Below are positions 5,758 to 46,825 of a stretch of DNA of 64,000 bases, in pieces (position 1 is the stretch's first letter; every line of letters starts with the position of its first letter). Source of the DNA: Diprion similis (Eukaryota > Arthropoda > Insecta > Hymenoptera > Diprionidae); contig NC_060106.1 of NCBI RefSeq assembly GCF_021155765.1, positions 193,501-257,500 of the forward strand, in the 5' to 3' direction. Both the position numbers and the translations under genes were made by a program. The notes beneath the pieces were generated by a model. It was not told the DNA's origin, made no database searches, and saw only the letters and a program-made list of their open reading frames with translations.

Positions 5758-5892
5758 AACTGCACAAAAGCTGCGGATAAATATAATCTTAATAATATGG
5801 CGTCCAACCACGAGGCAACGGATCCCAACTGCGAATCGTACAAAAGAGAGGTAAACAGAAACAGAAAAAATATATTATACGGTAGAGAATAG
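5755..5892 (+). pseudogene. ORF1 C-terminal fragment of A2
   Basis: About 45 codons ending in NHEATDPNCESYKREVNRNR and a TAG stop at 5890-5892. The same C-terminal signature (D/NHEATD..C.SY) ends ORF1 of A3, A4 and A5, where it is part of the zinc-knuckle region of the nucleic-acid-binding ORF1 protein. The rest is lost by 5' truncation. Confidence 0.8.
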
Positions 5893-10570: not shown

Positions 10571-12428
10571 CATTGTAACGTGGCATTTTTTTTGATGCTC
10601 GTTACAAGTGGCTCCCCGAACCTTAGGAGGGACTCTAACAAGGGATTTCGCGACAAGAATGATTATCTAATTCGTAAAGAGCGCCAGGACAAGGGTCACG
10701 CATCCGAAACACTGAGAGGGGACCCTTTACAGGCTAGCGAATAGAGTATTACAGGGTCTTTTTGTTTAATTTTGTTTTGAGTATTTGCGACACCAACCAG
10801 GGAGATAGACGACGAATTCGAGAGTGTGGAACCGGCCGTAAAGAGAGACCTCAACGGAGGATACACCGCGAGCGAAGGGTCTCACACGAGGCTACGGAGG
10901 GAGCGCCAACGCCGAGCTCTGCCGCGAGGGAAACCAAGGCGGACGAGATTCCCGCTGTTGGCCAGCGAACCGTAGCCTGCCTTCCTCGCGATACACCATC
11001 ATGCCAACGATCGTGCTGCCTCTACGCCACTGACGAGGACTGAACACCGGAGAGTCCAACGACCAATCTGCGAGCCGTGACAGCGGAAACCGACGTTAGC
11101 GATAAGCTAGAATTTAAGAGACGCGTAATTGGATACCCAATAAGATTCGTCAAATTTCGGAAACGACAACGCCTCGGTTGAAATTCTTGGCTCGGTGTGA
11201 CGGAGCAGGACACTTGCGTCCTGGTGCTGAATCTAGCGAAGGCTGCGAAAATTTTGTAAAGATAGTTTTTTTTTTGGGTTATTGAGAGAGTTGAGCGATT
11301 GGTGTTAAAATTTTGGGATTCGCGGAAGACGGAACCATTGTCCAATTATCGTGACGGAGATTTTTCTGGTCTGGATTCATTGCGGTAAGCGCTATCGCTT
11401 CTTTGCGGACAAATTTCGAGAACGGTTTAGGTCGGCGCACCGGGTAACGGTTGGCCATGTTGAGTTGCGTCAAACAATACTCGAAATTCGTTTGCCGATT
11501 TCCTTGGTTGGTGGCCGGAGCTTGATTTTGTTTTTTTGCGATAACGTATCGAGTCAATTTTGGCTATTGTACATGTTAAGTAGAGTCATTCGTTTCATTA
11601 TTTGCGAGCAGCCCAAATTCCGCTGCACAGGGTCAAGTCGCGTTTGCGTGTTCAGAAAGTGTCACCTCTCGTGTAGGTCGCGTATCGCTAAGTGTGAGCG
11701 CTCTGTTTGGCTGGGTTATTATCTCTAGTTTCCTTGTTTGATTTGTTTCGGAAGATAGTGAAGTTTCGGATGCGTCGCGATTAATCGCTTCGATTTAAGT
11801 TGTTAAGTAAGAATTACTGTCGAGTACTTGTAGGGTATGTTTTGCGATTAGCGCGATAATTCTGTTAGGGTTTGGCGAATAGCGCCGATATTTATAATTA
11901 AGGGAAGGACGATCACGAGTAGCGTGTCCGTATAGTTGTCGATTTTCTGTATTTTGATTTTTGTTTTGTTGATCCCGTTGAGACGAGGAACGCGACTAGC
12001 GCACGTAGATTTAAGGTTTAATTAAGATTTGATTTTCTTTCTATTTTGTTTGTGGAATCGCGGGAGGCGAATTGAGTATCTGTTTCTTTTTCCTTTTGTT
12101 TTGTATCGCTTCGAATTTTTTTTCTCTGAATATATTATTTTATTTTATTTTGGTAAATTCTGTATCGTGTCGAGTGTCCGTTCTTTCTCTCCGCAAAATT
12201 ACCCACCCCCCTCTCCGCGGTACTGAGCTACCTGGCATAGAGAAGGGTAGCCGAGGAATTGCGAAGGTAAAGATTCGAGGCGTGTTTATCACGCCAGGCG
12301 CCCAACAAAATTTCGCGATAGCTTTGGTAAGCTGCAGAGTGCATCGCGGGTTGCCGAATCATTGTGCACCAGGTGAACTCTTGGGAACTTCTCCGGGTGA
12401 ACAAGAGCGGCGAAAAACCACGTCACAA
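10571..12428 (+). mobile_element. Solo LTR-like element, copy 1 (1.86 kb)
   Basis: The ends form an 11-bp near-perfect inverted repeat (TTGTAACGTGG / CCACGTCACAA) and the element is flanked by AACAC at 10566-10570 and 12429-12433. It is collinear with 50099-51946. A motif GGCGCCCAACA (12297-12307), similar to retroviral primer binding sites, lies 121 bases before the end in both copies. No protein domain is seen; frames at 10762-11043, 11351-11728 and 12072-12461 lack motifs and are not conserved between copies. Most likely a solo LTR of a long-LTR retrotransposon; alternatively a short non-autonomous terminal-repeat element. Confidence 0.65.
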
Positions 12429-15447: not shown

Positions 15448-15493
15448 GCGCATGCGCAGTTCCTGTTTAGTTTCTAGAGATGGTCCCGGTATA
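15448..15493 (-). repeat. Right terminal inverted repeat of the 2.7-kb DNA transposon
   Basis: Perfect match in reverse to 12798-12843; sequence diverges immediately inside the repeat. Confidence 0.95.
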
Positions 15494-15498
15494 ATACA

Positions 15499-16965
15499 AT
15501 GTATTCAAGCGGTATAGCAAGCGAAATAATAGCATGCTATGGGTGCGCAAAGCCAATCAAGACTATCAGGCATGAATGTGAATTGTGCCTCAAAGCATAT
15601 CATCCAAGTTGCGCCAAACTCCATAAAATCTATAATGAATACCTTCAACTGGTGCCGTGCACTGCTAAAATTAGAGAAACGAAAATAAAAAAGATAGAAA
15701 GTACAAGCGAAAAAATTGATGATGAGTGGGTGAATGAAAATGATGAAAAAGAAAATGGACGAGAAATAATCCAAACAAAAATAAAAATGCTGGAAACAAC
15801 AAAAATCAATGAAAAAGGACAAGGAGCTAAGAAAAAGCAGAAACAAAGTACAAACGAAGAAATAGATGAGGTGTTTGCGACTGGAAGTGAAGAAAAAGAA
15901 AATAGGCAAAAAATAATCGAAGCATCAAAAACGGACTTAATGGTAGAGATGAAGAGGGATATTATGGCAGAGATTATGGGAAGTGGATTTAAAAACACCA
16001 TTAAAGAGATAGTTGCAAATGAAGTAAAGAAGGTGACAAAGGTGCTTAAAGAGGAAATAAAAACGTTAAAAATGGAAATACTAAAGGTTAACCAAAAATC
16101 GGAGAAAAATAATGCAAAAATGGAAGTAAGGGAACACGAAAGAAACACAAATATACAAAAAAGAAAGGATGACATATCGTATGCACAAGTTGCACGAAAA
16201 AACAAAAGAGAGGAAATAATAATTGAACCTGTCGAAATACAAACAAGCACTGAAACGGAAGGTGAAATGAAAAGCAACGTGGATATTATGGAACTAGGTG
16301 TAGGAATAAACAATATCGTAAAAGGACCAAAAGGGAAGATTATACTTCAATGTCAAGGAAGAAGGGATCGAGAGGTGCTAACGGGAGCCCTAACTCAAAG
16401 CATGGGAACTCAATATAAAGTCTATGCACCAAATAAAATATTGCCGAAAATAAAAATCGTTGGGATAGAGGAAGACGTAGATAGAGAAAATGAAAAAAAG
16501 TTTATTGAAAGAGTGGGTGCACAAAATGAAATAGACGTCGATAGCGAATCTTTTATGATGAAAATCATTAAGAAAACAGAAGGAAGAGGTGGAGCGACCA
16601 CAGTGATTATGGAAGTAGATCCGAAGACTCACAAGTATTTTGTGGAATCGAGGAAAGTTAAAATAGGATGGAAAATATGCTCGGTATACGATTACGTGAG
16701 CGTTAAAAGGTGCTTCAGATGTTGGGGATATAATCATACTTGGTCTGAATGTAGAAATAAACAAGCGTGTCGTAAATGCGGTGAAGGTCATGATGTAGAG
16801 GGATGCCAAGCAAATCACAAAAAATGTATAAACTGCTCAAAACTGAAAGAAAAATTTCAGCTACAAGAATTGTCGTGTGATCATGAAGTAACAGACTACA
16901 GGTGTGAATCGTATAACAGAATGGTAAATAAAAATAGAAAAAATATATTATATGGAGAGGAATAG
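15499..16965 (+). CDS. ORF1 of A3: PHD-like finger, coiled coil, CCHC-knuckle RNA-binding protein
   Basis: 488 codons from ATG, the first codon after the DNA transposon. Residues about 12-50 form a cysteine/histidine finger (CYGC...CELCLKAYHPSCAKLH) of PHD type. A long Lys/Glu-rich coiled-coil region follows to about residue 240. The C-terminus carries knuckles CFRCWGYNHTWSEC, CRKCGEGHDVEGC and CINC, then DHEVTDYRCESYNR. In non-LTR elements ORF1 proteins coat the RNA and chaperone reverse transcription; the knuckles support RNA binding here. It ends GAA-TAG and is followed in the same frame by ORF2. Orthologous ORFs are in A4 (29094) and A5 (38060). Whether the PHD-like finger binds chromatin is unknown. 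Confidence 0.85.
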   Translation: MYSSGIASEIIACYGCAKPIKTIRHECELCLKAYHPSCAKLHKIYNEYLQLVPCTAKIRETKIKKIESTSEKIDDEWVNENDEKENGREIIQTKIKMLETTKINEKGQGAKKKQKQSTNEEIDEVFATGSEEKENRQKIIEASKTDLMVEMKRDIMAEIMGSGFKNTIKEIVANEVKKVTKVLKEEIKTLKMEILKVNQKSEKNNAKMEVREHERNTNIQKRKDDISYAQVARKNKREEIIIEPVEIQTSTETEGEMKSNVDIMELGVGINNIVKGPKGKIILQCQGRRDREVLTGALTQSMGTQYKVYAPNKILPKIKIVGIEEDVDRENEKKFIERVGAQNEIDVDSESFMMKIIKKTEGRGGATTVIMEVDPKTHKYFVESRKVKIGWKICSVYDYVSVKRCFRCWGYNHTWSECRNKQACRKCGEGHDVEGCQANHKKCINCSKLKEKFQLQELSCDHEVTDYRCESYNRMVNKNRKNILYGEE

Positions 16966-16971
16966 CAATTA
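16960..16971 (+). promoter_or_regulatory. In-frame ORF1 stop, context GAA-TAG-CAA-TTA (A3)
   Basis: TAG at 16963-16965 followed by CAA TTA, the exact leaky UAG-CAA-UUA context known from tobamovirus replicase. ORF2 continues in frame. The EEP Asn (LLNAQG) is 21 codons downstream and no ATG lies between; the first in-frame ATG is at 17083, after the motif. Readthrough is inferred. Confidence 0.7.
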
Positions 16972-19830
16972 GTCAAAGAGATAGAAAATGAAAAAAAATG
17001 CCATAAAGGGTCTTTTATACTACTTCTGAATGCTCAAGGATATCTACAAAATAAGGACGAAATAGAGAATTTAGCCGTACAAATGAAACCAAAGATATTA
17101 TGTTCAACAGAAACGCATGTAACGAGCGAAATAGAAGAAAATGAACTGAATATTGATAACTATGAATTGGTAAGATGTGATACAAAAAATAGTAGAACAG
17201 GAGGAGTAATGACATTTATAAATAATGAAATAAAATTTAAAGTTATAAGCACGGAGAATATAGAGCAAAATACCTGGATCAGTACAATACAGTTGATGGG
17301 AAATTACAAAGACATCGTAGTGTGTAATGTAAACCACTCCCCGAATAAAAGTGATGGTACATTTATTGATGCGGTACTAGAAGAATGTGACAAAATAATA
17401 GAAATGGGACATATAATGGTAATAGGGGATTTTAATATTGATGTAAACAAAGAGAACCATTATTCCAAAAGAATAATACGAAGCATGAGAAGGTTAGGGT
17501 TAAAGCAATACGTGAAAGAATATACCAGGATTACCGAAACATCGAAAACAATTATCGACCTTGTGTTTTCAAATTTTTATACTAATGCAGAAGTATTATC
17601 AACACCAAAATTGACAGATCACCAAATAATAAAAATAGATAATTTAATGAAAGACGAAGGGAAATCCGGAATGACTAAATTTTACGCGAGAGATTATTCA
17701 AATTTTAATGTGGACAGTTTTAATGAAATACTGACGAATAAAATAGAAACAATATATGACATGGAAAGCAATGTTGATAATCAAGCAAATGTGTTAGTAA
17801 AATGCGTTACAGATACCATAAATGAAATAGTACCGATAATTGAGAAAAAAATACCGACGAGGTGGAAAGAAAAGTCGTGGGTTAAAAACGAAGTCAAAGA
17901 AGCAAGAAAAAAAAGAGACCAAGCGTATAAAAAGGCAGCTATGACAAACACAGGACAAGATTGGGAAGAATATAAAAGATTAAGAAATATGGTAGTAACA
18001 CAAACAAGAAGAAGCAAACGAAATTATTATGAAGAGAATATTGATGCAGAAAAATCAAATCCGACGAAAATGTGGAAAACATTGAAAAAAATAATAGGAA
18101 ACGAGAAAAAAACAGTAAATATGAAAGGAATAAGTTTTGATGGGGTAATATGCAATGAAGAAGAGAAAATAGCCGACATGTTCAACAAATTCTTTCTGCA
18201 TAGTATAGATGAGATAGTGGGGAATGACAATGGCGAGAAAAATATAGATATAGAAATAGATATAAGAGTAGAATCACGATTTGAAAAATGTAGGGAAGTA
18301 AATCGAGAGGAGATGAATAAAATCGTGAAGAATTTAGAAAACAAAAAGGGAACAGACGAAGGTATAAACACTAAATTTATACAGATGGCGTGGGTAGTTG
18401 CAGACGAAATAATGTTAAATGTGGTTAATAAATCTCTAAAGGAAGGAAGATTTCCCGAAAAATGGAAAACCTCGACGGTAATACCAATTCCGAAAGTCAC
18501 AGGAAGTATAAAAGCGGAAGAGCATCGACCAATTAATATACTACCGATGTATGAAAAGATTCTGGAAATCGCAGCAAAAGAACAGATAGTGGATTATATT
18601 GACAATAACAATATTTTAAGAAACGAACAATCAGGCTTTCGAAGGGGTTACTCATGCGAGACAGCAATACAAAATACGATAATAAGTTGGAAAAGAAAAA
18701 TAGATAAAAAGGAAATAGTAGCAGTTGTCTTTTTGGACTTTAAAAGAGCATTTGAGACAGTAAATCGGAAAATTCTAATGCAAAAGATAAAGAAATATGG
18801 TATAACGGGACAAGCACACAAATGGCTGGAATCATACCTAAGAAATCGGAAGCAAAAAGTAAAATTCGGAAATAGCACATCAAGTGAAATAAACACGATC
18901 CATGGTGTTCCGCAAGGATCTGTAATGGGGCCCTTACTATTTGTATTGTACATAAATGACATAGTTTCTCAACTTAAGTATTGTTCCTGTAAAATGTTCG
19001 CTGACGACACAATTATTTATGTGAGCGGTTATGATATTTGTGAGATTGAACGAAAATTAAATTACGATTTAGAAAACGTTATACGGTGGCTTGAAATAAA
19101 TTCCTTGAGACTAAATACAATGAAAACAAAGTTTATGGTGGTTCATGACCCGCAAAAACTGAACGTAACGGACTGTTGTGAAGTAATAATAGAAGGTATA
19201 AAGATAGAAGAAGTAAAAGAAATTAAATACTTAGGGGTGATAATAGACAATAATTTAACACTAAATAGTTTAGCCGAATATATAGTAAAAAAGGTAGCGA
19301 AAAAAATTAACTTTATGTACAGAATAAATAAATATGTAACAACAAACACACTCGTGACAATATATAAAACGATAGTGGCACCACACTTCGAGTACTGCAG
19401 TACCCTATTATTAAACGTTAACCAATACTGGATGGATATGTTACAAAAGACTCAAAATAGAGCAATGAGAGCAATTTTACGAGCGGACAGGTATACGCGA
19501 ATACGAGATATGTTGGATGTATTGGGTTTTATGAATATTAAACAGCGAATGGTACTAAATGTGTGTGTATTTATATACAAAATTAAGAACGGAATGATGC
19601 CAAAATACCTCAGCGATGAAATGATGATTGTAGGAGAAAATTACAAGTATAATACAAGACAGAAAGAAAACATAGCCGTGTATTACTGCAGAACCACCGC
19701 AGCACAAAGATGCTTAACGTATACGGGATATGAAATGTACAATAAGATACCGCGTGAGATCAAGGAGGCGCAGGGTCTACAGGTATTCAAAAGATTGCTG
19801 AAGGAATATGTAAAGGCGGAAATATTATAA
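16966..19830 (+). CDS. ORF2 of A3: EEP endonuclease and reverse transcriptase, open
   Basis: The frame is open from the ORF1 stop to TAA at 19828-19830, 954 codons. EEP: LLNAQGYLQNKDE at the start, STETHVTSE (17105), VIGDFNIDVN (17421), TDHQ (17619). RT: HRPINILPMYEKILE (18525), NEQSGFRRGYSCETA, VVFLDFKRAFETVNR (18724), HGVPQGSVMGPLLFV (18901), catalytic FADDTIIYVS (18999). The C-terminal region with APHFEYC and TQNRAMRAIL is of unknown role and lacks RNase H. An ATG-initiated product from 17083 would lack the EEP Asn motif, so initiation probably depends on ORF1 translation. With intact catalytic residues in both enzymes this copy is a possible source of active protein in trans. Confidence 0.85.
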   Translation, partial: QLVKEIENEKKCHKGSFILLLNAQGYLQNKDEIENLAVQMKPKILCSTETHVTSEIEENELNIDNYELVRCDTKNSRTGGVMTFINNEIKFKVISTENIEQNTWISTIQLMGNYKDIVVCNVNHSPNKSDGTFIDAVLEECDKIIEMGHIMVIGDFNIDVNKENHYSKRIIRSMRRLGLKQYVKEYTRITETSKTIIDLVFSNFYTNAEVLSTPKLTDHQIIKIDNLMKDEGKSGMTKFYARDYSNFNVDSFNEILTNKIETIYDMESNVDNQANVLVKCVTDTINEIVPIIEKKIPTRWKEKSWVKNEVKEARKKRDQAYKKAAMTNTGQDWEEYKRLRNMVVTQTRRSKRNYYEENIDAEKSNPTKMWKTLKKIIGNEKKTVNMKGISFDGVICNEEEKIADMFNKFFLHSIDEIVGNDNGEKNIDIEIDIRVESRFEKCREVNREEMNKIVKNLENKKGTDEGINTKFIQMAWVVADEIMLNVVNKSLKEGRFPEKWKTSTVIPIPKVTGSIKAEEHRPINILPMYEKILEIAAKEQIVDYIDNNNILRNEQSGFRRGYSCETAIQNTIISWKRKIDKKEIVAVVFLDFKRAFETVNRKILMQKIKKYGITGQAHKWLESYLRNRKQKVKFGNSTSSEINTIHGVPQGSVMGPLLFVLYINDIVSQLKYCSCKMFADDTIIYVSGYDICEIERKLNYDLENVIRWLEINSLRLNTMKTKFMVVHDPQKLNVTDCCEVIIEGIKIEEVKEIKYLGVIIDNNLTLNSLAEYIVKKVAKKINFMYRINKYVTTNTLVTIYKTIVAPHFEYCSTLLLNVNQYWMDMLQKTQNRAMRAILRADRYTRIRDMLDVLGFMNIKQRMVLNVCVFIYKIKNGMMPKYLSDEMMIVGENYKYNTRQKENIAVYYCRTTAAQRCLTYTGYEMYNKIPREIKEAQGLQVFKRLLKEYVKAEIL

Positions 19831-20050: not shown

Positions 20051-20383
20051 CAACAGCCAACAGCCAGTACAAAGAACGCAACTGTCTCTTTTGTTGTTAC
20101 ACTCAAATCAATCCCCGTTCGTGATTTTGTCATTGACAAAAAAAGAACTGTGCCTAATCTCAAAGTCGCAGATGTGTTTTCCATTAACACTCCCGGATTT
20201 ATCTATGTGAATGAACTTTTACCGCAAGAAACATATAAACTTTTATTACGTACCAAAGCCAAAGCAGCTTCCACCGCTTACAAATATGTCTGGCATAGGT
20301 ACGGGCGTATTGCAGTTCGTCGCGACAACGGTCACCCAATTATGTTTATCGACTCGGGCAGCGACCTTGACAAGCTCATCTGA
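20048..20383 (+). pseudogene. ORF1 C-terminal fragment of B2 (FP-like domain)
   Basis: Open from the TC tract to TGA at 20381-20383 (112 codons). It matches the C-terminal domain of B5 and B7 ORF1: VRDFVIDKKR, FIYVNELLPQETYKLL, YKYVWHRYG and a final SDLDKLI. This pattern resembles the baculovirus FP-like ORF1 C-terminal domain of many insect non-LTR elements. N-terminal finger and coiled coil are lost by truncation. Confidence 0.75.
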
Positions 20384-20386
20384 CTA
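20381..20386 (+). promoter_or_regulatory. In-frame ORF1 stop, context TGA-CTA (B2)
   Basis: UGA-CUA is a classic leaky stop context (alphaviruses, several animal genes). ORF2 continues in frame, with the EEP Asn motif QFNANS 28 codons on. No in-frame ATG occurs until about codon 320 of ORF2, beyond the whole endonuclease. Confidence 0.7.
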
Positions 20387-23844: not shown

Positions 23845-25002
23845 GAGGCACTAACCAACGATGACGATCCCGACTCGCCGGGCGGCTCTCGTCCGATTTC
23901 ACCGTCGCTGCCTACACATTCCACCGACTCCAGCTCCTTACGAAAAAGGGGGCGCCCTCCGGCCGACGACGGTGACAACTTTAAAAACCCGCCAAAAAAA
24001 CCCGCGGCGTCGAAGCCCACACTGGCCAACGTTATGGCCTGCCTCGGAGGAATCAATGAGTCCCTCAACGCCCAGAACCTTGTACTGAAGACCCAAGAGG
24101 TCAGTCTTGGAGCCATCGAGGACTCACTATCGAGACATGGTGCTCTCTTGCAGACACTCCCGGTTATGCAGGCTACTCTCGACTCGGCCAGCACCGATCT
24201 GGTATCCCTAAAGGATACCACTGATCGCCTCACTCAGACTACTGACGCCTTATCAAAAAAGTCCGACCTTCATGATCGAAAGTACGCTCAGCTCGAGCAG
24301 GCGCTCAGTCAGCTCACTGCTCGCGTCGATGGACTACCGCTTGAGCCTGGCCCCAGCACTTCCGGCACTGCAGAATACACCAGGCTCACTGCTGCGTTGA
24401 ACGCAAATTCCCTACGCAACTTGAGGACTTCAGCCGGTCAATCACTCGACGCCGAGATCACTATCTCTGGCTTTACATTCGCGACCGTCAACGAGGAAAC
24501 CCTCTTCACTCTTACTAAAGCCGTAGCCAACGCAGTCAGGCTCAAGCACTCGCCGGACGATTTCTTGAGCGCACGTCCACTTCGTAAAAAGTCAGCGGTG
24601 TCACCCTCTGAGCCGTCTACATCCACGGCCACGACCATCGCCACGAGGACCACGTTCGCTGTGGTATGCAGTGACCCAACGCTCGCTGGTCGCTTCGTCA
24701 GTGCCAAGAGGAGGTTTGGAACCCTCAAGTTCTCCCAATTGGATAACGCGCTGCTCCCTGGTGTCGACCTGCCGACCCCGGCGGGTGATTTCACTATCAA
24801 TGTGAACGAGATGCTGCCTTCTCACGTTCTCAGGCTGCTCAACGATGCAAAATCGACACTCAAGCCAGCCGGTTTCAAGTATGTGTGGTGCACTAACCGT
24901 ACTATCTACGCGAAATTCAAGGACGGCGACATAGTTCAAATCATCAACTCTCATACAGATATCACCGGGACCATCAAGCTATACGCCGGTGCTCCTCAAT
25001 AA
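23845..25002 (+). CDS. ORF1 of C1 (partial at N-terminus): coiled coil and FP-like domain
   Basis: Open from the truncation point; the first ATG is at 24034. Segments: acidic and basic low-complexity N-terminus (RKRGRPPADD), a coiled coil from about 24090 to 24330 (heptad-like leucines), a Ser/Thr/Pro linker, then the C-terminal FP-like domain (EITISGFTF, RRFGTLKFSQ, FTINVNEMLPSHVLRLL, FKYVWCTNRTIYAKFKDGD). The domain order matches B5 and B7, though no PHD finger remains. Probable RNA-binding chaperone of the element. It ends with TAA and is followed in frame by ORF2. Confidence 0.8.
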   Translation, partial: EALTNDDDPDSPGGSRPISPSLPTHSTDSSSLRKRGRPPADDGDNFKNPPKKPAASKPTLANVMACLGGINESLNAQNLVLKTQEVSLGAIEDSLSRHGALLQTLPVMQATLDSASTDLVSLKDTTDRLTQTTDALSKKSDLHDRKYAQLEQALSQLTARVDGLPLEPGPSTSGTAEYTRLTAALNANSLRNLRTSAGQSLDAEITISGFTFATVNEETLFTLTKAVANAVRLKHSPDDFLSARPLRKKSAVSPSEPSTSTATTIATRTTFAVVCSDPTLAGRFVSAKRRFGTLKFSQLDNALLPGVDLPTPAGDFTINVNEMLPSHVLRLLNDAKSTLKPAGFKYVWCTNRTIYAKFKDGDIVQIINSHTDITGTIKLYAGAPQ

Positions 25003-28267: not shown

Positions 28268-29093
28268 GAGTTGAGAGGGTGCTCAAATTGTTGCTCTGTA
28301 GAAAGTGCGACTACCAGGTGGATAGTGCGTCATTGTTCATAATAAAATAACGTGAATGTGGGGGAGGAAGTGACGAACTTTTTGAGAGGAGTGAAATAAA
28401 CTGTGGTAAACTTTTTGAAAAGTGATAAAGAAAATTGCGAACGAGATTTCCTAACCTCAAAGTAACTTAGTCTGATATATTGATTGTTTTCATCGATCGC
28501 GGCTGCGTTCAACGTCGCACTAGATATCTGTCAGCTCTCTGAAGCTGGCAAATCACATCGAGCGTTTTCCGAAAATACGCTTATTAAACGAGTGTCGGAG
28601 TACAGTCAGGTGTTACTCACCGAAGAAATATCTTGTAGCGCTTGAGACAACGAGGAAATCAATAGCGGGAAAATTGTGAAGAGGCTTATGGAGATCGGTC
28701 ATCACGACAGTGCATAGCGGGCACACGACGACGAGTCGGACACGGGGAACCATCTATCACTATCGCCACCTGGCTCTAACAAGTTATTGATCTTCCATCG
28801 ATCACTTAGGTCAATTATCATAACACAAATGGTGGCAATAGGGGGTACTTTAATACCGACGGCGGATGATTCTTTCTAACGTGCTAAAGCAAACCAACGG
28901 ATAACAAGTAAATATCACGAAGGATCGATACAAATTGATATCTGAAGCAACGACGTAAACAACGTACACTGGTCAATAAAGGTATTGTCACTTCCCCATA
29001 TATGACGGTCGGTATTAAAGAGCACTATCTGAGGGTGTAATAAAAATAAGTAAATAAATAAATAAATAAAATAGAAGAAAGCAATAATGCAGT

Positions 29094-30497
29094 ATGTTTT
29101 CCAGTAAAGAATGGAACTGTCAAGCCTGTAAGAAAGAAATACAAACAGAAGTGACAAGATGTATACCTTGTTTGAAGAACTTTCATCCAGGGTGTACACA
29201 AAAGCACAGAGTTTACAATAGAGATAATGAAATGGTTATGTGTACAGGAAAGAAAGAATCAATTATAAGAAATAAAGGGAAAGATAAAACGGAAAGCGTA
29301 GGAGGTAACAATAGCATAAAAAATGACAAGGAGGTGGATAAGACAAAGGGAACAACAAACAAGGAGCAGAAAACAACAGTAACAACATCGATGGAAAAGG
29401 AGAAACGGGAGGAGAGGGATAGGGAGGGTGGGAGGGAGAGAGAAATGAGAGCAGAAGGGAACGGAATAATTGAAGAGAGCATCGAAAAAATCCTCAAAAT
29501 TGTACGTAACATAAAAGATGAGGGAATAAGCAGAAATGAAATCAAAAAGATTGTAGAAGATACTATAGGAATACAATTATTACAACTAAAACAAGAAATA
29601 TTAGAAATAAAAAACACGCTAGAAGTAATAACAGCAAACAGCAATAAGCCAATCGAAAGAAGTGGTGAAACACAAAGTTACGCAGAGGTAATAAAAACAA
29701 AGAAAAGAGAAAATATTCTCATAGTAAAACCAAAGGGAAACCAAGAGAGTCAAGCGACGAAAGAGACGATGCTCAACAAAGTAAATATTAAAACATTACC
29801 AGTAGGAGTATCAAGAGTAGCAAAAGGAAATAAGGGAACGATCATAATAGGATGCGAGAGTGAAAGAGAGGTGAGACAATTAAAAGAATCAGTGGAAGAG
29901 ACGATAGGGGACGATTTTCAAACAATAATACCGAAGCAAAAGCAGCCAAAAATAAAAATAGTAGGGGTTGACGAAGAAGAAATGGAATTAGCTGACGAAT
30001 CGATACTAGAAACAATTAAAGTGCAAAACGAAATAAACGGCGAAAGGGAAGGATACCACATGAAAATAGTGAAAAGATATACAATAGAGAAATTAAATGA
30101 AGTAAAAAGAAAAAAATATACTGAGGGAACACTAATCATTGAAACAGATGCAGAAACTCATAAGAAATTAGTAAGAAAAGAGAAAGTCAACATAGGATGG
30201 AGAAAATGCAAGGTGTATGACTTTATCAGTGTACTAAGATGCCTCAGATGCTGGGGATTCAATCATATGGCAAAATACTGCAAGAAAGAGGAAGTTTGCC
30301 GATACTGCGCGGGAAACCACAACGACGTAGACTGTACGTCAGGAGAAAAGAGACGTGTGAACTGTAGAGATAAAATTAGGCGATACAATAATAAAAACAT
30401 CAAGGACGATCATGAAGCGACAGACAAAGACTGCCCGACGTACCGCAAAAAAATGGAAGAAGAAATATCAAAAAGGTCCGTAGATGACACAGAATAG
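29094..30497 (+). CDS. ORF1 of A4: PHD-like finger, coiled coil, CCHC knuckles
   Basis: 467 codons from ATG. N-terminal finger CQACKKEIQTEVTRCIPCLK then FHPGCTQKH. A strongly charged, Arg/Glu-rich coiled coil occupies residues about 60-200. C-terminal zinc knuckles are CLRCWGFNHMAKYC and CRYCAGNHNDVDC; the third knuckle seen in A5 (CINC) is degenerate here (RRVNC). It ends DHEATDKDCPTYRKK and GAA-TAG. Same expected role as A3 ORF1: binding of element RNA. The frame is intact. Confidence 0.85.
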   Translation: MFSSKEWNCQACKKEIQTEVTRCIPCLKNFHPGCTQKHRVYNRDNEMVMCTGKKESIIRNKGKDKTESVGGNNSIKNDKEVDKTKGTTNKEQKTTVTTSMEKEKREERDREGGREREMRAEGNGIIEESIEKILKIVRNIKDEGISRNEIKKIVEDTIGIQLLQLKQEILEIKNTLEVITANSNKPIERSGETQSYAEVIKTKKRENILIVKPKGNQESQATKETMLNKVNIKTLPVGVSRVAKGNKGTIIIGCESEREVRQLKESVEETIGDDFQTIIPKQKQPKIKIVGVDEEEMELADESILETIKVQNEINGEREGYHMKIVKRYTIEKLNEVKRKKYTEGTLIIETDAETHKKLVRKEKVNIGWRKCKVYDFISVLRCLRCWGFNHMAKYCKKEEVCRYCAGNHNDVDCTSGEKRRVNCRDKIRRYNNKNIKDDHEATDKDCPTYRKKMEEEISKRSVDDTE

Positions 30498-37686: not shown

Positions 37687-38059
37687 AGCGCTAGTGAGAG
37701 AAAGACGTGTCAAAGTAACGCTCTGTAAAAGACAAATTACTTAAGCGCAAAAAGTAAATAGTAATGTTAATCATCGATCAGAGTGACAGTGTGTGCGAAT
37801 GTGAACTATAAAGACACGAGATACCCTAAAAAGAGGACATATATGAGAAAAAACCAGTAGTTTTGTGCTTGTGTTATTGGAATTCCCCGACAAGGAGTAA
37901 TAGGGACGACCATTACCTTAGTCACGGTAACACATGTTTAGAGTGATTAGCAGCGCGAGAGGGGAGGCGTGTTGATTACAAGAACTGTGTGACAAGAATC
38001 TACCGGTATAAGTCACCAACATGTTGGTAACTTATCAGCTATACTGATTCGACGTCGAT

Positions 38060-39346
38060 ATGAATACGACAAAGGAATATGACGAGTACAGATGCTCAGC
38101 GTGTAAGAAAGCGATTAAGAGTCAGGTAGTGCAATGCAAAGCGTGCCCAAAGCTGTTTTATCACCCGGGATGTGTAATCAAGCATAAAGTATTTGATAGA
38201 AATCGGGAATTAGTCCAGTGTGCTGGTCCGTTTATGAAATTCATGATCGATGAAAATGAGACGGTGAGGTCAGGAATACCAATGGCAGGTGGCAGTAGTG
38301 ACAGAAGAGGCTCAGTGGAGGTGAGTAACAGTAACAAAAGCTCGGTCGAAATGAAAATAGACTGGATGGTAAAGACAATAAAGGAAATGAAGGAAGAAAT
38401 TGCTTGCAAAAATGAAGTGAAAAATATAATTCAAGAAATAGTGCAAGAGGAAATGCAAGGGGTGAGACAAGAAATTGATGAACTCAGAAGAATAATACAA
38501 GGAGAAGGAATAACTACGGCAAGAGATATCAGAGAAACATACAGTGATGCAGTAAAAAAAAAGAAAAGAGAGAAAGTCATTATTGTTAAACCCAAGGTGC
38601 AACAGGAAAGTGAAGTTACAAAAAAAACAATAAAGGAAAAGGTTAATATAAAAGGTATGTCGGTGGGAGTTTCCAAGCTGAAAAAAGGTAGTAGAGGGTC
38701 AGTGATACTGGGCTGCGAAACGGAAGCAGAAATAGAAACACTGAAGAATGCAGTACAAGAGCAGTTGGGGGAAAACTTTAATGTTGTAGAGACAGCACAA
38801 ATTAGACCGAAGATTAAGATTGTCAACGTGGGAGAGGAGGAGCTAGAGATGGAAAATGACGAATTGATTGAGACTATTAAAATACAGAATGGGTTGGAAG
38901 AAAACGAACGGAGCAAGATGAAAATTGTTAAAAAAATAACCAAGGCGAGGGAACAAACACGTAGTAGGGGAGGACAAATCGAGGGATCGGTGATTCTCGA
39001 AGTGGATGAAAAAACGAATGAAAACATAATAAGCAGAGGAAAGCTCAACGTTGGATGGCGTAAATGTCCAGCTTACAGCCACGTCAACGTTAAGCGATGT
39101 TTCAGATGCTGGGGATACTATCATATAGCTAAGAATTGCAAAAGGGATGTAACATGTACGGAATGTGCAGGAAATCACAACGCGAGAGAATGTACATCGA
39201 CACAGAGCAAGTGTATAAACTGTATACATAAAAATCAATCGTTTAACCTCAATATTAATGTTGAGCATAGCGCGCTCGATCGCGATTGCCCAACATACAT
39301 ACGAGCATTACAAGAGGAGAAAAAGAGAGCAGGATGGATGGAATAG
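38060..39346 (+). CDS. ORF1 of A5: PHD-like finger, coiled coil, CCHC knuckles
   Basis: 428 codons from ATG. N-terminal finger CSACKKAIKSQVVQCKACPK then FYHPGCVIKH; coiled coil about residues 90-150 (KEMKEEIACKNEVKNIIQEI...); a conserved middle domain with KVIIVKPKVQQESE and SVILGCETEAEIE also seen in A4; C-terminal knuckles CFRCWGYYHIAKNC, CTECAGNHNARECTS and CINC. It ends GWME-TAG. Expected to bind and package element RNA. The SYADA/YSDAV-type motif before the middle domain (AQVARKNKREEI in A3, YSDAVKKKKREKV here) is shared by all three full A ORF1s. Confidence 0.87.
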   Translation: MNTTKEYDEYRCSACKKAIKSQVVQCKACPKLFYHPGCVIKHKVFDRNRELVQCAGPFMKFMIDENETVRSGIPMAGGSSDRRGSVEVSNSNKSSVEMKIDWMVKTIKEMKEEIACKNEVKNIIQEIVQEEMQGVRQEIDELRRIIQGEGITTARDIRETYSDAVKKKKREKVIIVKPKVQQESEVTKKTIKEKVNIKGMSVGVSKLKKGSRGSVILGCETEAEIETLKNAVQEQLGENFNVVETAQIRPKIKIVNVGEEELEMENDELIETIKIQNGLEENERSKMKIVKKITKAREQTRSRGGQIEGSVILEVDEKTNENIISRGKLNVGWRKCPAYSHVNVKRCFRCWGYYHIAKNCKRDVTCTECAGNHNARECTSTQSKCINCIHKNQSFNLNINVEHSALDRDCPTYIRALQEEKKRAGWME

Positions 39347-39349
39347 CAA
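39341..39349 (+). promoter_or_regulatory. In-frame ORF1 stop, context GAA-TAG-CAA (A5)
   Basis: TAG at 39344-39346. ORF2 continues in frame; EEP Asn (YTNAQS) is only 11 codons downstream with no ATG before it. The first ATG (39428) lies beyond the motif. Confidence 0.7.
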
Positions 39350-42199
39350 CGACCCAAATTAGAGAACATATGGTATACCAACGCACAAAGTCTTCTGGCG
39401 CATAAGGACGAGATTCAAAACCAAGTGATGGACGAAATTAAGCCAGCAATCGTAGCGTTATCCGAAACGCGAGTTACGGTTGATATGGGAGATTGTGAAG
39501 TATACATGCCAGGGTATACTATAGTTAGATGTGACGCAGAAAGCAGAAATACAGGTGGCACAATTCTATACATAAGAGGTGATATTAAATATGAAGTATT
39601 AATGATTAGAAAAATTGAGTCTAATTGCTGGATTACAGCAATAGAAGTAAAAGATAAAATTTTCAAAGGAGTTATCATGACTGTGTATCATTCTCCAAGC
39701 TCGTCAGATGGAGAATTTTTAAGATTTTTGGTAGAAGTGACTGAAGAGTTGATAGTGAAAGGAGACTGTTTGATAATTGGGGATTTCAATATAGATATCT
39801 CAGAGAAATCATTTTACAAAAAAAAATTATTAACGGAAATGTCGTGCTTGGGAATGAAGCAGTATGTAAATGAAATGACAAGAATTACCCGAGAAAGCCA
39901 AACGATGATAGACTTACTATTTGCGAATAAGAGAGTACAATTGCGGGTGAAACACGAACCAAAAATAACAGATCACGCGTGGATAATAGTTGACCTGGGG
40001 ACAGTCCACAAGGCCAATGAGTATAGAGAATTTGAAACGCGGAATTATAGTAAAATTAATGGTGATGATTTTAAAAGAGCTTTGAAAAAAAATGTGACGC
40101 AAAACCAGGGTATGGAGTTGAATAAAAGAGCCAAATTATTTGTAGAAAATATTGTCACCACGTTGGACAGATTTGCGCCAAGAAGAATATGCAAAATCCC
40201 TAAAGTATGGGAGGGAAAAAATTGGTTTTCTGATGATATAAAATTAGCGGCGAGTAGAAGGGATCGAGCATATAAAAACGCAACACTCAGGGGGTCAGAA
40301 GAAGCCTGGAAAATATTCAAAATAGAAAGAAACGCGGTAGTAAAAATGATAAAGGCAAAAAAGAAAGAATATTATGAAAATATGATACATGGTAGTGAAA
40401 ATGACCCGAGTAGAATGTGGAAAACCTTAAAAAGATTAATCAAAGACCCAATAGGCGTGGAACGAATTGTGAAAATTGATTTCGAAATACTGAGTGGTAT
40501 GACGGAAGATAAGTTAGCTGATAAATTTAATTTATTTTATGTGCAAAGTATTAGCGAAATAGCAAATTCTATACAAACTGGTGTGACGAGCAGATTGTGT
40601 ACAGCAAACACACGGGGAGTAGGTACTGAGAATGAAAATACCATGGAAAACTTTAAGACTGTTGAAATAGAAGAACTAGAAAAGATAGTTAAGGAACTTC
40701 CTAAGAAAAATAAGGGTACGGAAGAGGGGATATCGAGTGAAATATTGAAACTATCGTTTAGTGTGATTAAACAGGAATTCGTTGAAATCATTAATGGCTC
40801 GCTGAGAGAAGGGTGGTGCCCAGAGAGTTGGAAAAAGTCCACGATCATACCTGTTCCGAAGATAAATAAACCAAAAAAAGCGAGTGAATTTAGACCAATC
40901 AATATGCTGCCACTATATGAGAAGGTGTTAGAACTTGCTGTGAAAAGACAAATTGAGATATATCTAGAGGAAAATAATACCATTACAGAGCACCAATCGG
41001 GTTTCAAAAGAAAATTCTCGTGTGAAACGGCGATACAAACGGTTGTTGATGGATGGAAACTAGGGATAAGTGAGGGTAAAATGGTAGGGGTAATATTTAT
41101 GGATCTTAAAAGAGCCTTTGAGACGGTAGATAGAAATATACTCATAGAAACATTTTATAGATATGGAATCAGAGGTGTAGTATTAGAATGGATATGTTCG
41201 TACTTAAGAGGCAGAAAGCAACAGGTTAGATTTAATAATGAATATTCTAATGTTATTGATACGGAATACGGAGTTCCGCAAGGATCTGTATTGGGACCAT
41301 TGTTATTCATTATATACATAAATCATGTAATCAAAATATGCCCGAGAGATTGCGCAATAAAAATGTTCGCTGATGATACATTAATATATGTAACTGGAAA
41401 GAGTAGTGCAGAATTAGACCGAAAAATGAATGAGGCATTGGGAAGAATAGAAGGATGGATGAACGACAACAGATTGAAAATGAATGCGTCAAAAACAAAA
41501 TTTATGGTTTTAAGAAGCACAAGAAAAAAAATTGGTGAAAATGTTACGGTGAAATGTTTGGATGGAACAGAGCTAGGGCAAGTGAAAAGTATGAAATACT
41601 TGGGAATAATTATTGACGAGAAGCTGCAATTTAAAGAACATTGTGAATATATGTTGAAGAAGATAGGTAAAAAAACAAGTTTTTTAAACAGAATTGGACA
41701 ATATATATCAGCATACACTAGATGTATAATATATAAGACGATCATTGCACCTCATTTCGAGTACTGTGCAACTCTGCTTGTAAGCATGGGAAGCACGGAG
41801 ATAAATAACCTACAGATTGCGCAGAACAGAGCGATGCGAGTTATTCTACAATGCAGTAGATACACGAGAGTAGAACACATGTTGAAAGCGTTGCAGTTCA
41901 TGTCAGTGAGACAACGGTTATATTTTAATGTGTGTATATTTTTCTTTAAAGCTGTAAAAGATCTATTGCCGACAGAAATAAAGAACAAGCTGAAATGGGT
42001 AGGGATGAGGAGTGGGCGAATTACACGGCAGGCTGGAGACATTATAATTGAATTTAGAAGAACGAGAAATGCGCAAATGGGTATGTTTTATGATGGAGTG
42101 AAAATGTATAATGCTCTACCAGCGGAGATAAAAAACTGTGAAAGTTTAAATCACTTTAAACGTATGTTAAAAGAGTATGTTATATCTGTTATTCGATAA
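39347..42199 (+). CDS. ORF2 of A5: EEP endonuclease and reverse transcriptase, open
   Basis: 950 codons open from the ORF1 stop to TAA at 42197-42199. EEP: WYTNAQSLLAHKDEIQN, LSETRVTVD, GGTILYI, VYHSPSSSDGE, IIGDFNIDIS (39776), TDHAW. RT: FRPINMLPLYEKVLE (40889), EHQSGFKRKFSCETAIQ, VIFMDLKRAFETVDR (41091), YGVPQGSVLGPLLFIIYIN (41269; followed by His where sisters have Asp), catalytic FADDTLIYVT (41367). C-terminal region as in other A copies (APHFEYCATLL, QNRAMRVILQCSRYTR). AUG initiation would remove the EEP Asn motif, so the functional enzyme is probably an ORF1-ORF2 fusion or arises by non-AUG initiation. Confidence 0.87.
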   Translation, partial: QRPKLENIWYTNAQSLLAHKDEIQNQVMDEIKPAIVALSETRVTVDMGDCEVYMPGYTIVRCDAESRNTGGTILYIRGDIKYEVLMIRKIESNCWITAIEVKDKIFKGVIMTVYHSPSSSDGEFLRFLVEVTEELIVKGDCLIIGDFNIDISEKSFYKKKLLTEMSCLGMKQYVNEMTRITRESQTMIDLLFANKRVQLRVKHEPKITDHAWIIVDLGTVHKANEYREFETRNYSKINGDDFKRALKKNVTQNQGMELNKRAKLFVENIVTTLDRFAPRRICKIPKVWEGKNWFSDDIKLAASRRDRAYKNATLRGSEEAWKIFKIERNAVVKMIKAKKKEYYENMIHGSENDPSRMWKTLKRLIKDPIGVERIVKIDFEILSGMTEDKLADKFNLFYVQSISEIANSIQTGVTSRLCTANTRGVGTENENTMENFKTVEIEELEKIVKELPKKNKGTEEGISSEILKLSFSVIKQEFVEIINGSLREGWCPESWKKSTIIPVPKINKPKKASEFRPINMLPLYEKVLELAVKRQIEIYLEENNTITEHQSGFKRKFSCETAIQTVVDGWKLGISEGKMVGVIFMDLKRAFETVDRNILIETFYRYGIRGVVLEWICSYLRGRKQQVRFNNEYSNVIDTEYGVPQGSVLGPLLFIIYINHVIKICPRDCAIKMFADDTLIYVTGKSSAELDRKMNEALGRIEGWMNDNRLKMNASKTKFMVLRSTRKKIGENVTVKCLDGTELGQVKSMKYLGIIIDEKLQFKEHCEYMLKKIGKKTSFLNRIGQYISAYTRCIIYKTIIAPHFEYCATLLVSMGSTEINNLQIAQNRAMRVILQCSRYTRVEHMLKALQFMSVRQRLYFNVCIFFFKAVKDLLPTEIKNKLKWVGMRSGRITRQAGDIIIEFRRTRNAQMGMFYDGVKMYNALPAEIKNCESLNHFKRMLKEYVISVIR

Positions 42200-42805: not shown

Positions 42806-43834
42806 ATGTCGGTAAATTGCTTTAAATGCAAGAAAACAATAGCAAACTGTCAATTCGAGTGCCGAGACTGTGGACGTGCATTTCATCCTGGATGCTGTAA
42901 GAGTCACTTTATTACAAAGTCGGCGAACGAGTGCTGTATCAATAATTTGCCTGTCCTTGCGAGTAATTTCGCAAACTTAGGAAATTCAACGAGCGCTCAG
43001 CAAAACGATCAAATCATGCCTAAAGATCTGATCTCTCTCGATCCAAAATCACCAGATGCTTCGCAAAAATCTAGCTCGGATCAAATGTTGGAAAAAATAT
43101 TTGCTAAGCTTGAAAGCACTGAATCAAAAATTGATAAAACTGAAATGAAAATTACAACATTCAGTGAGAGGCAAGATAAAACTAATGATGAATTTCGATC
43201 TCTTCTCGAGCGCATTCCAGAAATCGACAAAATTATAAACGAGCATGCTGATCAAATATCGACGTTACAACTAGCAAACCGGAAATTACTATCAGAGGTT
43301 GATGCGTTAAAGGCGTTAGTAAATACTTCACGCAATACATATGTAAACACTGGTGAAATCATACTATCAGGGTTACCCTCGGATTCTGACGTTTCACCTG
43401 AAGAGATGACAAAGAAAGTTTTCGAAGTGCTTGGCATCGCTGAATTATTACCGCACATTTTATCTGTACGAAAGCTCACCAGGAAAGGAAATTCCACTGC
43501 TGGCACACCGCAAAGATCTACCGTATCATATATTGTTGCGCTAACGTCAAACTCCGTACGAGACGTAGTGTTGAGCAAAAAACGTGCTAAACGCGACTTG
43601 AAATGGTCAGAAGTCATTGTGGGATGTCCTCCAGCATCGAAAAATTCAAACGTTTTCGTAAACGAAATGCTATCAGCTTCAACTTATAATCTATTGAGAC
43701 AAACGAAGAAAAAAGCTGCGGAGACTGCCTTCAAACACGTCTGGGCCAGACAAGACACTGTATTCGTAAGAAAGGAAGATGGTTCACTGAGGCTTACGAT
43801 TAATTCACTGGATGATTTATCAAAATTGGCATGA
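42806..43834 (+). CDS. ORF1 of B5: PHD-like finger, coiled coil, FP-like domain
   Basis: 342 codons. The start is set at 42806 because B7 ORF1 has the same ATG context and begins MSV.CFKC; an upstream extension in frame to 42713 lacks ATG. Residues 5-48: CFKCKKTIANCQFECRDCGR then AFHPGCCKSHF and CC, a PHD-type finger. Coiled coil about residues 95-170 (LEKIFAKLESTESKIDKTE..). The C-terminal domain has IILSGLPSD, VLSKKRAKRDLKW, VFVNEMLSASTYNLLRQTKKK, FKHVWARQD, VRKEDGS and a final SLDDLSKLA, similar to baculovirus FP-like ORF1 ends. Intact; likely an RNA-binding chaperone. Ends with TGA and is followed in frame by ORF2. Confidence 0.85.
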   Translation: MSVNCFKCKKTIANCQFECRDCGRAFHPGCCKSHFITKSANECCINNLPVLASNFANLGNSTSAQQNDQIMPKDLISLDPKSPDASQKSSSDQMLEKIFAKLESTESKIDKTEMKITTFSERQDKTNDEFRSLLERIPEIDKIINEHADQISTLQLANRKLLSEVDALKALVNTSRNTYVNTGEIILSGLPSDSDVSPEEMTKKVFEVLGIAELLPHILSVRKLTRKGNSTAGTPQRSTVSYIVALTSNSVRDVVLSKKRAKRDLKWSEVIVGCPPASKNSNVFVNEMLSASTYNLLRQTKKKAAETAFKHVWARQDTVFVRKEDGSLRLTINSLDDLSKLA

Positions 43835-45904: not shown

Positions 45905-46825
45905 ATGTCAGTTGCTTGTTTTAAATGCCGACGGTCGGTCGCTGGTGGGAAGCTTGAATGCGCTACTTGCCTTAGAATTTTTCATCCAGGGTGTTATAAA
46001 CATTACATAAGTTATAGAAATTCTAATCGCTGCTGTATCAACAACCTTAGCAGTATGCCTACGAATGCAACTCTGAGTACTGGTGACACTCAATCTGGTG
46101 GCACTTTAGATTCAATATTAGCTCTTCTCAATAAAAATGATGCGACGCTCAATGCTTTCATTAACCATCAAAATAAATATAACAACGATATGGCGACTAA
46201 AATTAATTCTATTGAAAATATTGTTAAAACTGTGAATGAGTATGGCGACAGAATAGCTCAGCTAGAAGCTAATAATGTGTCACTTACTAGAGAGATTGAG
46301 TCTTTGCGTGCGTTGATAACAAACACACCTATAATATCCTCAGCTGAGATTACAGTAGCGGGAATACCGGTTGCTATTACAGATAGTCCGCAAGTTATGA
46401 TAAATAAAGTTCTGACTGCGCTAGGTGTTCCGGAACTCACTTCGGACATTCTCGATATTCGCCATATTACTCGCAAAGCTCCAGAACACCAAAATCAAGA
46501 AACTAGAGATACTCGAGAATGGTCAAAATCGTTTATTGTATATTTTAAATCTTCGCAGATCAGTAATCATATTATTAGGAAAAAACGTTCTCATGGTGTT
46601 CTAACTGTTAAAGATGTTTTATCGGGCGAACATCAAGGTAATATCTTTGTCAACGAGATTTTACCCACGATTGTATATAAGTTGCTATGTAAAACTAAGG
46701 GAGTTGCGAGAGAACGCGGCTGGAAGTATGTGTGGACGAGTGAGTGTCAAATATACGCACGTAAGCAAGATGGTTCGCAGTCGATTCGGATTTCTACCGA
46801 TGCCGATTTATCAAAATTGGATTGA
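45905..46825 (+). CDS. ORF1 of B7: PHD-like finger, coiled coil, FP-like domain
   Basis: 306 codons from ATG. Finger: CFKCRRSVAGGKLECATCLR, then FHPGCYKHYI and CC. Coiled coil about residues 65-140 (LDSILALLNKND... through IAQLEANNVSLTREIESLRAL). The C-terminal domain carries EITVAGIPVA, RKKRSHGVLTVKDVL, IFVNEILPTIVYKLL, WKYVWTSECQIYARKQDGS and a final DADLSKLD. It aligns along its length with B5 ORF1 although overall sequence has diverged. The frame is intact despite the decayed ORF2. Ends TGA-CTA, in frame with ORF2. Confidence 0.82.
   Translation: MSVACFKCRRSVAGGKLECATCLRIFHPGCYKHYISYRNSNRCCINNLSSMPTNATLSTGDTQSGGTLDSILALLNKNDATLNAFINHQNKYNNDMATKINSIENIVKTVNEYGDRIAQLEANNVSLTREIESLRALITNTPIISSAEITVAGIPVAITDSPQVMINKVLTALGVPELTSDILDIRHITRKAPEHQNQETRDTREWSKSFIVYFKSSQISNHIIRKKRSHGVLTVKDVLSGEHQGNIFVNEILPTIVYKLLCKTKGVARERGWKYVWTSECQIYARKQDGSQSIRISTDADLSKLD

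What the first reader, a model, noticed from the sequence alone, without database searches (positions are those of the whole stretch)
16960..17000. Family A: ORF1 and ORF2 in one frame across a conserved GAA-UAG-CAA stop (4 of 4 copies)
At 5890, 16963, 30495 and 39344 ORF1 ends in TAG with GAA before and CAA after, and ORF2 continues in the same frame. Spacers from stop to the endonuclease Asn motif are 17, 21, 13 and 11 codons with unalignable sequence, yet all indels keep frame. In A3 and A5 there is no ATG before the Asn motif, so AUG-initiated ORF2 would lack an active endonuclease. A3 has UAG-CAA-UUA, the known tobamovirus-type leaky context. Readthrough giving an ORF1-EEP-RT fusion explains frame, codon context and missing AUG together.
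Basis: partly seen in the sequence, partly recalled or inferred. Interest (0 to 1): 0.88.

Follow-up and report, generated by a model that had tools for sequence, protein, structure and literature searches.

The report
Leaky stop joins two retrotransposon genes
In a sawfly genome, jumping genes of one large group keep a weak stop signal between their two genes, which suggests that ribosomes now and then read through it to make one fused protein, as some viruses do.

Summary
The window lies in the sawfly Diprion similis; its elements are EEP-RT non-LTR retrotransposons.

All four "family A" junctions read GAA-TAG-CAA with ORF2 in frame. Genome-wide I compared 42 lineages of two clades.

- Clade A: TAG-CAR 11 of 11, A at +9 11 of 11, CARNBA 10 of 11.
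- Clade B: TGA 28 of 31, C at +4 30 of 31.
- Control: ORF2's own stops have +4 C in 2 of 21, ORF1 stops in 41 of 42 (p = 7e-13).
- Frame: all 19 copies with ORF2 of at least 930 codons and a recognised ORF1 end are in frame; seven decayed copies are not.
- Spacer stops by frame: 0, 44, 34.
- In 33 of 40 lineages no in-frame AUG precedes the endonuclease's catalytic Asn.

No local stem-loop was found. Best explanation: programmed stop-codon readthrough giving an ORF1-endonuclease-RT fusion, type-I-like in clade A and UGA-C in clade B. Translation was not measured. Readthrough is known in retroviruses, LTR elements and RNA viruses; the (capped) literature listings I saw showed no report for non-LTR elements.

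The parts
15478..16962 (+). ORF1 of the clade A copy in question (stop-to-stop frame; PHD-like N-terminus by eye, zinc knuckles near the C-terminus)
   Evidence: no Pfam hit
16961..16971 (+). Proposed readthrough signal: AA-TAG-CAATTA
16966..19830 (+). ORF2, 954 codons open from the stop: 21-codon spacer, EEP endonuclease, reverse transcriptase
5890..5892 (+). Clade A junction stop GAA-TAG-CAACGA (ORF1 mostly lost; ORF2 frame 5893-7086)
29088..30497 (+). Clade A copy: ORF1 ending GAA-TAG (30495-30497), followed by CAACAA; ORF2 broken by a frame change near 30800
38048..39346 (+). Clade A copy: ORF1 ending GAA-TAG (39344-39346), followed by CAACGA
39347..42199 (+). Its ORF2 (950 codons); EEP beta-1 = residues 7-12 after the stop, Asn = residue 12
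20381..20383 (+). Clade B junction TGA-CTACAA; ORF1 3' fragment upstream, ORF2 20384-23308
25000..25002 (+). Clade B junction TAA-CGTTCC between ORF1 (23845-24999) and ORF2 (25003-27876)
43832..43834 (+). Clade B junction TGA-CGTCCC between ORF1 (42704-43831) and partial ORF2 (43835-45154)
46823..46825 (+). Clade B junction TGA-CTAAAT between ORF1 (45881-46822) and a following ORF2 whose catalytic Asn is replaced (FKANS)

Best explanation
The stop between ORF1 and ORF2 is a programmed leaky stop. Most ribosomes end at it and release ORF1 protein. A minority insert an amino acid at the stop and continue in the same frame, making an ORF1-spacer-endonuclease-reverse transcriptase fusion; this gives much RNA-binding protein and little enzyme, as retroviral Gag/Gag-Pol does. 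In clade A the signal is AA-UAG-CAR-NBA (type-I-like). In clade B it is mainly UGA followed by C, usually CUN or CGN. Shown: position, frame, context conservation, open spacer, lack of AUG. Inferred: that readthrough happens, its rate, the inserted residue, and that the fusion is the working enzyme.
For: (1) Frame: a profile of the ORF1 end, searched in all three forward frames, hits 60 of 80 loci examined; 52 are in ORF2's frame (4 of these are second fetches of one place and 3 belong to a control family), 8 are not. All 19 clade A/B copies with an ORF2 frame of at least 930 codons and a recognised ORF1 end are in frame. Stop-to-Asn spacers take 21 different lengths from 11 to 41 codons. (2) +4 C in 41 of 42 ORF1 stops against 2 of 21 ORF2 stops, p = 6.6e-13; TAA in 2 of 42 against 12 of 21, p = 7e-6. 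(3) Clade A, 11 lineages: -2 A 11/11, -1 A 10/11, TAG 11/11, CAR 11/11, +9 A 11/11, while the codon at +7 to +9 varies (CGA, TTA, CCA, AGA, CAA), so the constraint is on nucleotides. Clade B: +4 C 30/31, TGA 28/31, while positions +6 to +18 carry at most 0.42 bits each. (4) Spacer stops by frame 0/44/34 over 40 spacers, 933 codons. (5) No in-frame AUG before the catalytic Asn in 33 of 40 lineages; in some the first Met is 88 or 123 residues after it. The Asn sits at the end of beta-1 in a confident model (pLDDT 86.5) that matches LINE-1 endonuclease structures. (6) Four copies on four contigs with identically scoring endonucleases (L015-L018) kept the stop, so it was present in a recently active source. 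(7) The literature assigns these contexts to readthrough: UAG-CARYYA and UGA-CUA/CGG, with stimulation by AA before the stop (PMC3542737, passages); CARNBA in yeast, and UGA-CUA alone about 1.5% in human cells (PMC4132726, passages).
Against: No translation data. No local stem-loop downstream (mean z +0.09 for 11 clade A, +0.47 for 30 clade B lineages; 2 of 30 below -2), although type II signals often have one. Only 3 of 11 clade A lineages match CARYYA strictly, and one (30495) misses CARNBA too. Two clade B lineages use TAA, the least leaky stop in the human test, and one (L075) has A at +4. Seven decayed copies are out of frame and one non-representative copy (L098) has a TAA inside the spacer. 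Spacer pN/pS is 0.52 over 8 usable pairs, resting on few pairs, with one pair (L089/L090) at 4 nonsynonymous and 0 synonymous changes. No fused relative of clade A was found. The Candida LTR element Tca2 has gag-UGA-pol, yet its junction alone did not direct readthrough in S. cerevisiae (PMC2194720, abstract). Lineages share ancestry, so the p-values are indicative only.
Confidence: 0.9

Rival explanations
1. Termination-reinitiation or internal initiation: after ending ORF1 the ribosome restarts at an AUG of ORF2, as shown for SART1 and proposed for human L1.
For: Known for non-LTR elements (PMC2881922, passages; PMC5972666, passages). A third family in this genome (L107, L110, L111) looks built for it: two TAA stops followed by T and A, then ACAACAACATGG. 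Seven of 40 lineages have an in-frame AUG between the stop and the Asn.
Against: 33 of 40 lineages have no AUG before the catalytic Asn. Reinitiation does not need ORF2 in frame, a C at +4 or CARNBA, and does not explain the absence of stops in spacer frame 0.
Confidence: 0.05
2. Non-AUG initiation at a near-cognate codon in the spacer.
For: Would not need an AUG. Some clade B lineages have CUG directly after the stop.
Against: Spacers differ in length and sequence and no near-cognate codon was seen at a shared place (by eye). The context around the stop and the frame would be unexplained.
Confidence: 0.02
3. The stop is removed from the RNA by splicing or by A-to-I editing (UAG or UGA to UGG).
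For: NCBI's model for the copy at 5890 (P0015) lacks the stretch over the stop, as if an intron lay there. ADAR editing of UAG is known from hepatitis delta virus (recalled).
Against: That gap also removes beta-1 and the catalytic Asn, so it looks like an annotation artefact. Editing one A cannot open UAA, used by two lineages, and would not select for C at +4.
Confidence: 0.02
4. No function: the frame and context are inherited from a common ancestor without selection.
For: All lineages are related, so they are not independent trials.
Against: Junction regions have diverged to a median 0.60-0.64 nucleotide identity and spacer lengths take 21 values, yet the +4 base is nearly fixed while its neighbours are not. 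ORF2's own stops show no such bias.
Confidence: 0.01

Closest known systems
Type I viral readthrough (tobamovirus UAG-CARYYA)
   Same: UAG, CAR after it, A at +9, AA before it (PMC3542737, passages)
   Different: Mobile DNA in an insect, not a plant virus; 8 of 11 lineages lack YY at +7/+8 and most fit the yeast-defined CARNBA instead
Type II / UGA-CUA readthrough (alphaviruses, tobraviruses; mammalian UGA-CUAG genes)
   Same: UGA followed by C; 9 of 31 clade B lineages have UGA-CUA and 1 UGA-CGG
   Different: Other triplets after UGA are common; no local stem-loop
Gag-stop-Pol LTR retroelements (murine leukaemia virus; fission yeast Tj1/Tosmo)
   Same: Gag ORF, in-frame stop, polymerase ORF; the Schizosaccharomyces elements have GAA-TGA-CTA or CTG (PMC10085805, passages; murine leukaemia virus: PMC5009743, passages)
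   Different: Those are LTR elements that encode a protease; here an EEP-RT non-LTR element with no protease family hit in the 9 ORF1 and ORF2 proteins scanned
SART1 and L1 ORF1-ORF2 translation
   Same: Non-LTR, bicistronic RNA, ORF2 translation dependent on ORF1 translation
   Different: They use stop-start coupling or reinitiation at AUG (PMC2881922 and PMC5972666, passages); most lineages here have no AUG before the catalytic Asn

Membership tests
Type I readthrough signal | UAG stop | tested here: met
   11 of 11 clade A lineages
Type I readthrough signal | CARYYA directly after the stop | tested here: inconclusive
   CAR 11 of 11 and +9 A 11 of 11, but YY in only 3 of 11; CARNBA 10 of 11
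Type II readthrough signal | UGA followed by CUA or CGG | tested here: inconclusive
   10 of 31 clade B lineages; UGA-C of any kind in 27 of 31
Type II readthrough signal | 3' RNA structure starting about 8 nt downstream | tested here: not met
   80-90 nt windows from +9: mean z +0.47, 2 of 30 below -2; one lineage too short; long-range pairing not tested
Programmed readthrough | Measured fusion product above background | not testable with these tools
   No expression data
EEP-RT non-LTR retrotransposon | EEP endonuclease and RVT_1 in ORF2 | tested here: met
   RVT_1 in 4 of 4 window ORF2s scanned, E down to 4.7e-34; N12, E40, D146, N148, H210 invariant in 14 of 14; fold model matches LINE-1 endonuclease
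CR1/L2 lineages of the Jockey superfamily | ORF1 with PHD and RRM or CCHC domains; RT phylogeny | tested here: inconclusive
   Zinc knuckles in clade A; PHD-like motif by eye, no Pfam hit; Baculo_FP_2nd in the two clade B ORF1s scanned; no tree against named clades was built
SART1-like stop-start coupling | AUG overlapping or close to the stop | tested here: not met
   No AUG overlaps the stop in the 42 lineages; 33 of 40 have none before the Asn

The most novel reading that the evidence does not exclude
Stop-codon readthrough is the standard, long-conserved way in which a whole superfamily of insect non-LTR retrotransposons makes its endonuclease-reverse transcriptase, as an ORF1 fusion. Sister clades in one genome have settled on different leaky codes (UAG-CARNBA and UGA-C), so LINE-type elements reached the retroviral Gag/Gag-Pol solution on their own.
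Probability: 0.6. Interest if true: 0.82.

Novelty: new variant of a known kind. Interest (0 to 1): 0.73.

Why it matters
How the second ORF of non-LTR elements is translated is unsettled for most clades; the worked cases use reinitiation. A readthrough route would set the ORF1:ORF2 ratio by codon context, make the enzyme an ORF1 fusion (bearing on RNA binding in cis), and tie retrotransposition to host termination efficiency. The 42 natural contexts are also a ready set for measuring insect readthrough rules. Gene annotation mishandles such loci: one NCBI model skips the stretch over the stop.

Tried and rejected
Local RNA structure as the stimulator: rejected, z-scores near zero. A recoded nuclear code with UAG as sense: set aside because intact ORF2 frames of about 950 codons hold no in-frame stop while the junction stop is kept (inference). 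Fused ORF1-ORF2 relatives: the clade A search gave only one protein, distant and of 919 aa (candidates capped at 7984). The clade B search gave 50 matches covering at most 70% of the query. Two distant proteins, P0029 (1307 aa) and P0034 (1138 aa), carry PF00628 (recalled as PHD) with EEP and RT in one frame; they were not placed in either clade. Relatives on genome contigs (clade A) and viral contigs (clades A and B): none confirmed. PDB sequence search for the EEP: no hit at E 0.01 for the clade B copy, three weak partial hits (E 0.06-0.97) for clade A, hence the fold model. Spacer pN/pS: weak. Cross-species DNA: not available. Among clade A relatives P0001-P0021, mostly from unnamed sources, 8 predicted proteins start 1-4 residues before the Asn and 10 start after it (Diprion's own P0005 and P0015 and P0021 left out); this fits a missing upstream AUG but may be truncation or gene-caller choice. 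tRNA scan of the window: none.

A first frame tally took the last in-frame stop upstream of ORF2 as the junction, which is partly circular; one search replaced it with a profile search in three frames. Its 8 out-of-frame loci: L024 and L100 (weak hits), L025 (same element as L030, past the frame change), L026, L070, L086, L103, and L078 (ORF1 end split over two frames). Its 20 loci without a detected ORF1 end: L014, L027-L029, L031, L037, L064, L065, L067, L082, L087, L089, L090, L093, L095, L097, L101, L102, L106, L108; of these L087, L089, L093, L097 and L101 are lineage representatives in the context counts, where the in-frame ORF1 rests on reading by eye or, for L097 and L087, on little.

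Rows dropped before the context counts: L031 (same element as L032), L067 (same family as L089), L026 (script failed to parse it; context TAG-CAACCA), L070 and L086 (TGA-CTC and TGA-CGC), L014, L024, L025, L027-L029, L035, L037, L065, L082, L095, L100, L103, L106, L108 (5' truncated, decayed, repeat fetch, no readable junction or other family), L107/L110/L111 (other family, used as control), and L039-L063 and L066-L068 where they repeat earlier places. L093 and L087 carry an extra stop within ORF1. For L105 the Asn match is probably false. Four ORF2 frames of at least 930 codons are not in the 19: C2:74668 (not fetched) and L082, L065, L037 (no ORF1 end found).
Full report
What it is. The window is G000:C2:193501-257500. 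Protein matches named Diprion similis lie on contigs whose lengths equal those of C2 and C13, so the host is this pine sawfly. The window is packed with non-LTR retrotransposons of two clades. Clade A ("family A") has ORF1 with zinc knuckles; in clade B the two ORF1s scanned end in a Baculo_FP_2nd domain. Both have ORF2 with an EEP endonuclease and a reverse transcriptase.

Check of the observation. The stated coordinates, codons, spacers and missing in-frame ATGs are correct.

Genome-wide survey. Four searches of the window's own genome with endonuclease regions gave 30, 58, 90 and 75 matches, overlapping between searches. I tabulated 56 loci and 4 window copies, grouped them at 80% nucleotide identity around the junction, and dropped L031, L067 and L026, leaving 42 lineages: 11 clade A, 31 clade B. 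The four window copies of the finding are L011, L009, L030 and L021 there.

Frame. Because one search took the last in-frame stop as the junction, frame was tested again without that assumption: a profile of the ORF1 end, built from seven window copies, was searched in all three forward frames upstream of ORF2 in 80 loci. It hit 60. In 52 the ORF1 end is in ORF2's frame (4 are second fetches of one place, 3 belong to the control family below); in 8 it is not (7 places, all with ORF2 frames under 700 codons or stops inside). Among clade A and B copies with an ORF2 frame of at least 930 codons and a recognised ORF1 end, 19 of 19 are in frame (8 clade A, 11 clade B; four of them gave seeds of the profile).

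Context. Clade A: TAG 11/11; A at -2 11/11; A at -1 10/11; C at +4 11/11; A at +5 11/11; R at +6 11/11; A at +9 11/11. The second codon after the stop is CGA, TTA, CCA, AGA or CAA: the amino acid changes but the last base does not, so the constraint is on the RNA. Third-position A in the rest of the spacers is 76 of 182. Ten of 11 fit CARNBA, 3 of 11 CARYYA. Clade B: TGA 28, TAA 2, TAG 1; C at +4 30 of 31; T or G at +5 27 of 31; little information beyond. The exception, L075 (TGA-ATA), has a TAA inside its endonuclease match.

Internal control. The stop that ends ORF2 in such elements (9 in the window, 12 elsewhere, two of these one lineage) has C at +4 in 2 of 21 and is TAA in 12 of 21. ORF1 stops: C in 41 of 42, TAA in 2 of 42 (p = 6.6e-13 and 7e-6; lineages are related, so indicative only). 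A second control is another family (L107, L110, L111): its ORF1 end is in frame too, but at a TAA followed by T, then a second TAA followed by A, then a Kozak-like ACAACAACATGG. That is what an AUG-started ORF2 looks like here. It also shows that frame alone is not proof.

Spacer. Over 40 measured spacers (933 codons) there are 0 stops in frame 0, 44 in frame +1 and 34 in frame +2. The zero is partly by construction; one copy that is not a representative, L098, has a TAA in its spacer. pN/pS over 8 usable close pairs is 0.52, weak support for coding.

Why an AUG start does not work. EEP residues N12, E40, D146, N148 and H210 (numbered from the stop at 39344) are invariant in 14 of 14 sequences; their match to the catalytic set of APE1 and LINE-1 endonuclease is recalled. 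The AlphaFold model (pLDDT 86.5, pTM 0.84, 14 sequences) puts N12 at the end of beta-1, residues 7-12, and Foldseek's best matches are LINE-1 ORF2p and its endonuclease domain. Of 40 lineages in which the Asn was found, 33 have no in-frame AUG before it; in L036 the first Met is 123 residues after it, in the 25003 copy 88. Translation from an AUG would lose part of the enzyme.

Activity. L015-L018, four copies on four contigs with identical endonuclease scores, are a chimera: ORF1 and the first endonuclease residues resemble the 30495 lineage, the rest resembles the 16966 lineage, and a duplicated endonuclease start lies in frame between them. This chimera multiplied with the TAG-CAACGA junction intact.

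Mechanism and certainty. Shown: position, frame, context, open spacer, missing AUG. Inferred: readthrough by a near-cognate tRNA at a low rate, and function of the fusion. No downstream stem-loop was found, so the signal is probably the short context alone.

Literature. Passages seen: PMC3542737 (readthrough types), PMC4132726 (CARNBA, UGA-CUA), PMC10085805 (LTR elements), PMC2881922 and PMC5972666 (reinitiation), PMC4120745 (ORF1 types; [quoted passage not shown] abstract and outline: PMC2194720. Searches for readthrough in non-LTR elements listed 25 of 55, 20 of 46, 20 of 23, 15 of 84, 13 of 13, 20 of 84 and 2 of 2 papers; none of those listed reports it, judged from titles, abstract starts and the passages named. 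Kojima 2005 and Kapitonov & Jurka 2003 are not held, and Repbase could not be searched, so an earlier remark on this layout cannot be excluded.

Verdict. It is a new setting for a known recoding mechanism, strongly supported by comparison and untested at the bench.

Noticed in passing
window 4786, 19830, 23308, 27876, 33956, 36296, 37449, 42199 (ORF2 ends): Eight of 9 ORF2 ends examined are followed within 58-521 bases by short ATC-type repeats running into a (TC)n microsatellite; elements of both clades seem to insert into (TC)n tracts. The R1-clade element Kibi is recalled to target (TC)n.
   Followed up: partly
L015, L016, L017, L018: Four copies of a chimeric element with a duplicated endonuclease N-terminus in frame, apparently a recombinant of two clade A lineages that then multiplied.
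   Followed up: partly
window about 5800-7086; probably L018: NCBI models LOC124413536 (P0015) and LOC124413848 (P0005) mishandle the junction: one skips the stretch over the stop and beta-1, the other starts at a Met inside the spacer.
   Followed up: partly
L107, L110, L111: Another non-LTR family in the same genome has its ORF1 end in frame, two TAA stops and a Kozak-like AUG for ORF2, the opposite design.
   Followed up: yes
window 10631-12416 and 50155-51934: Two copies of a repeat about 39.5 kb apart, 81-97% alike in the matched blocks.
   Followed up: no
window 54033-55220 (-) and 55912-57552 (+): An RNase H domain ORF and a transposase-like ORF with a TNP-like RNase H domain.
   Followed up: no
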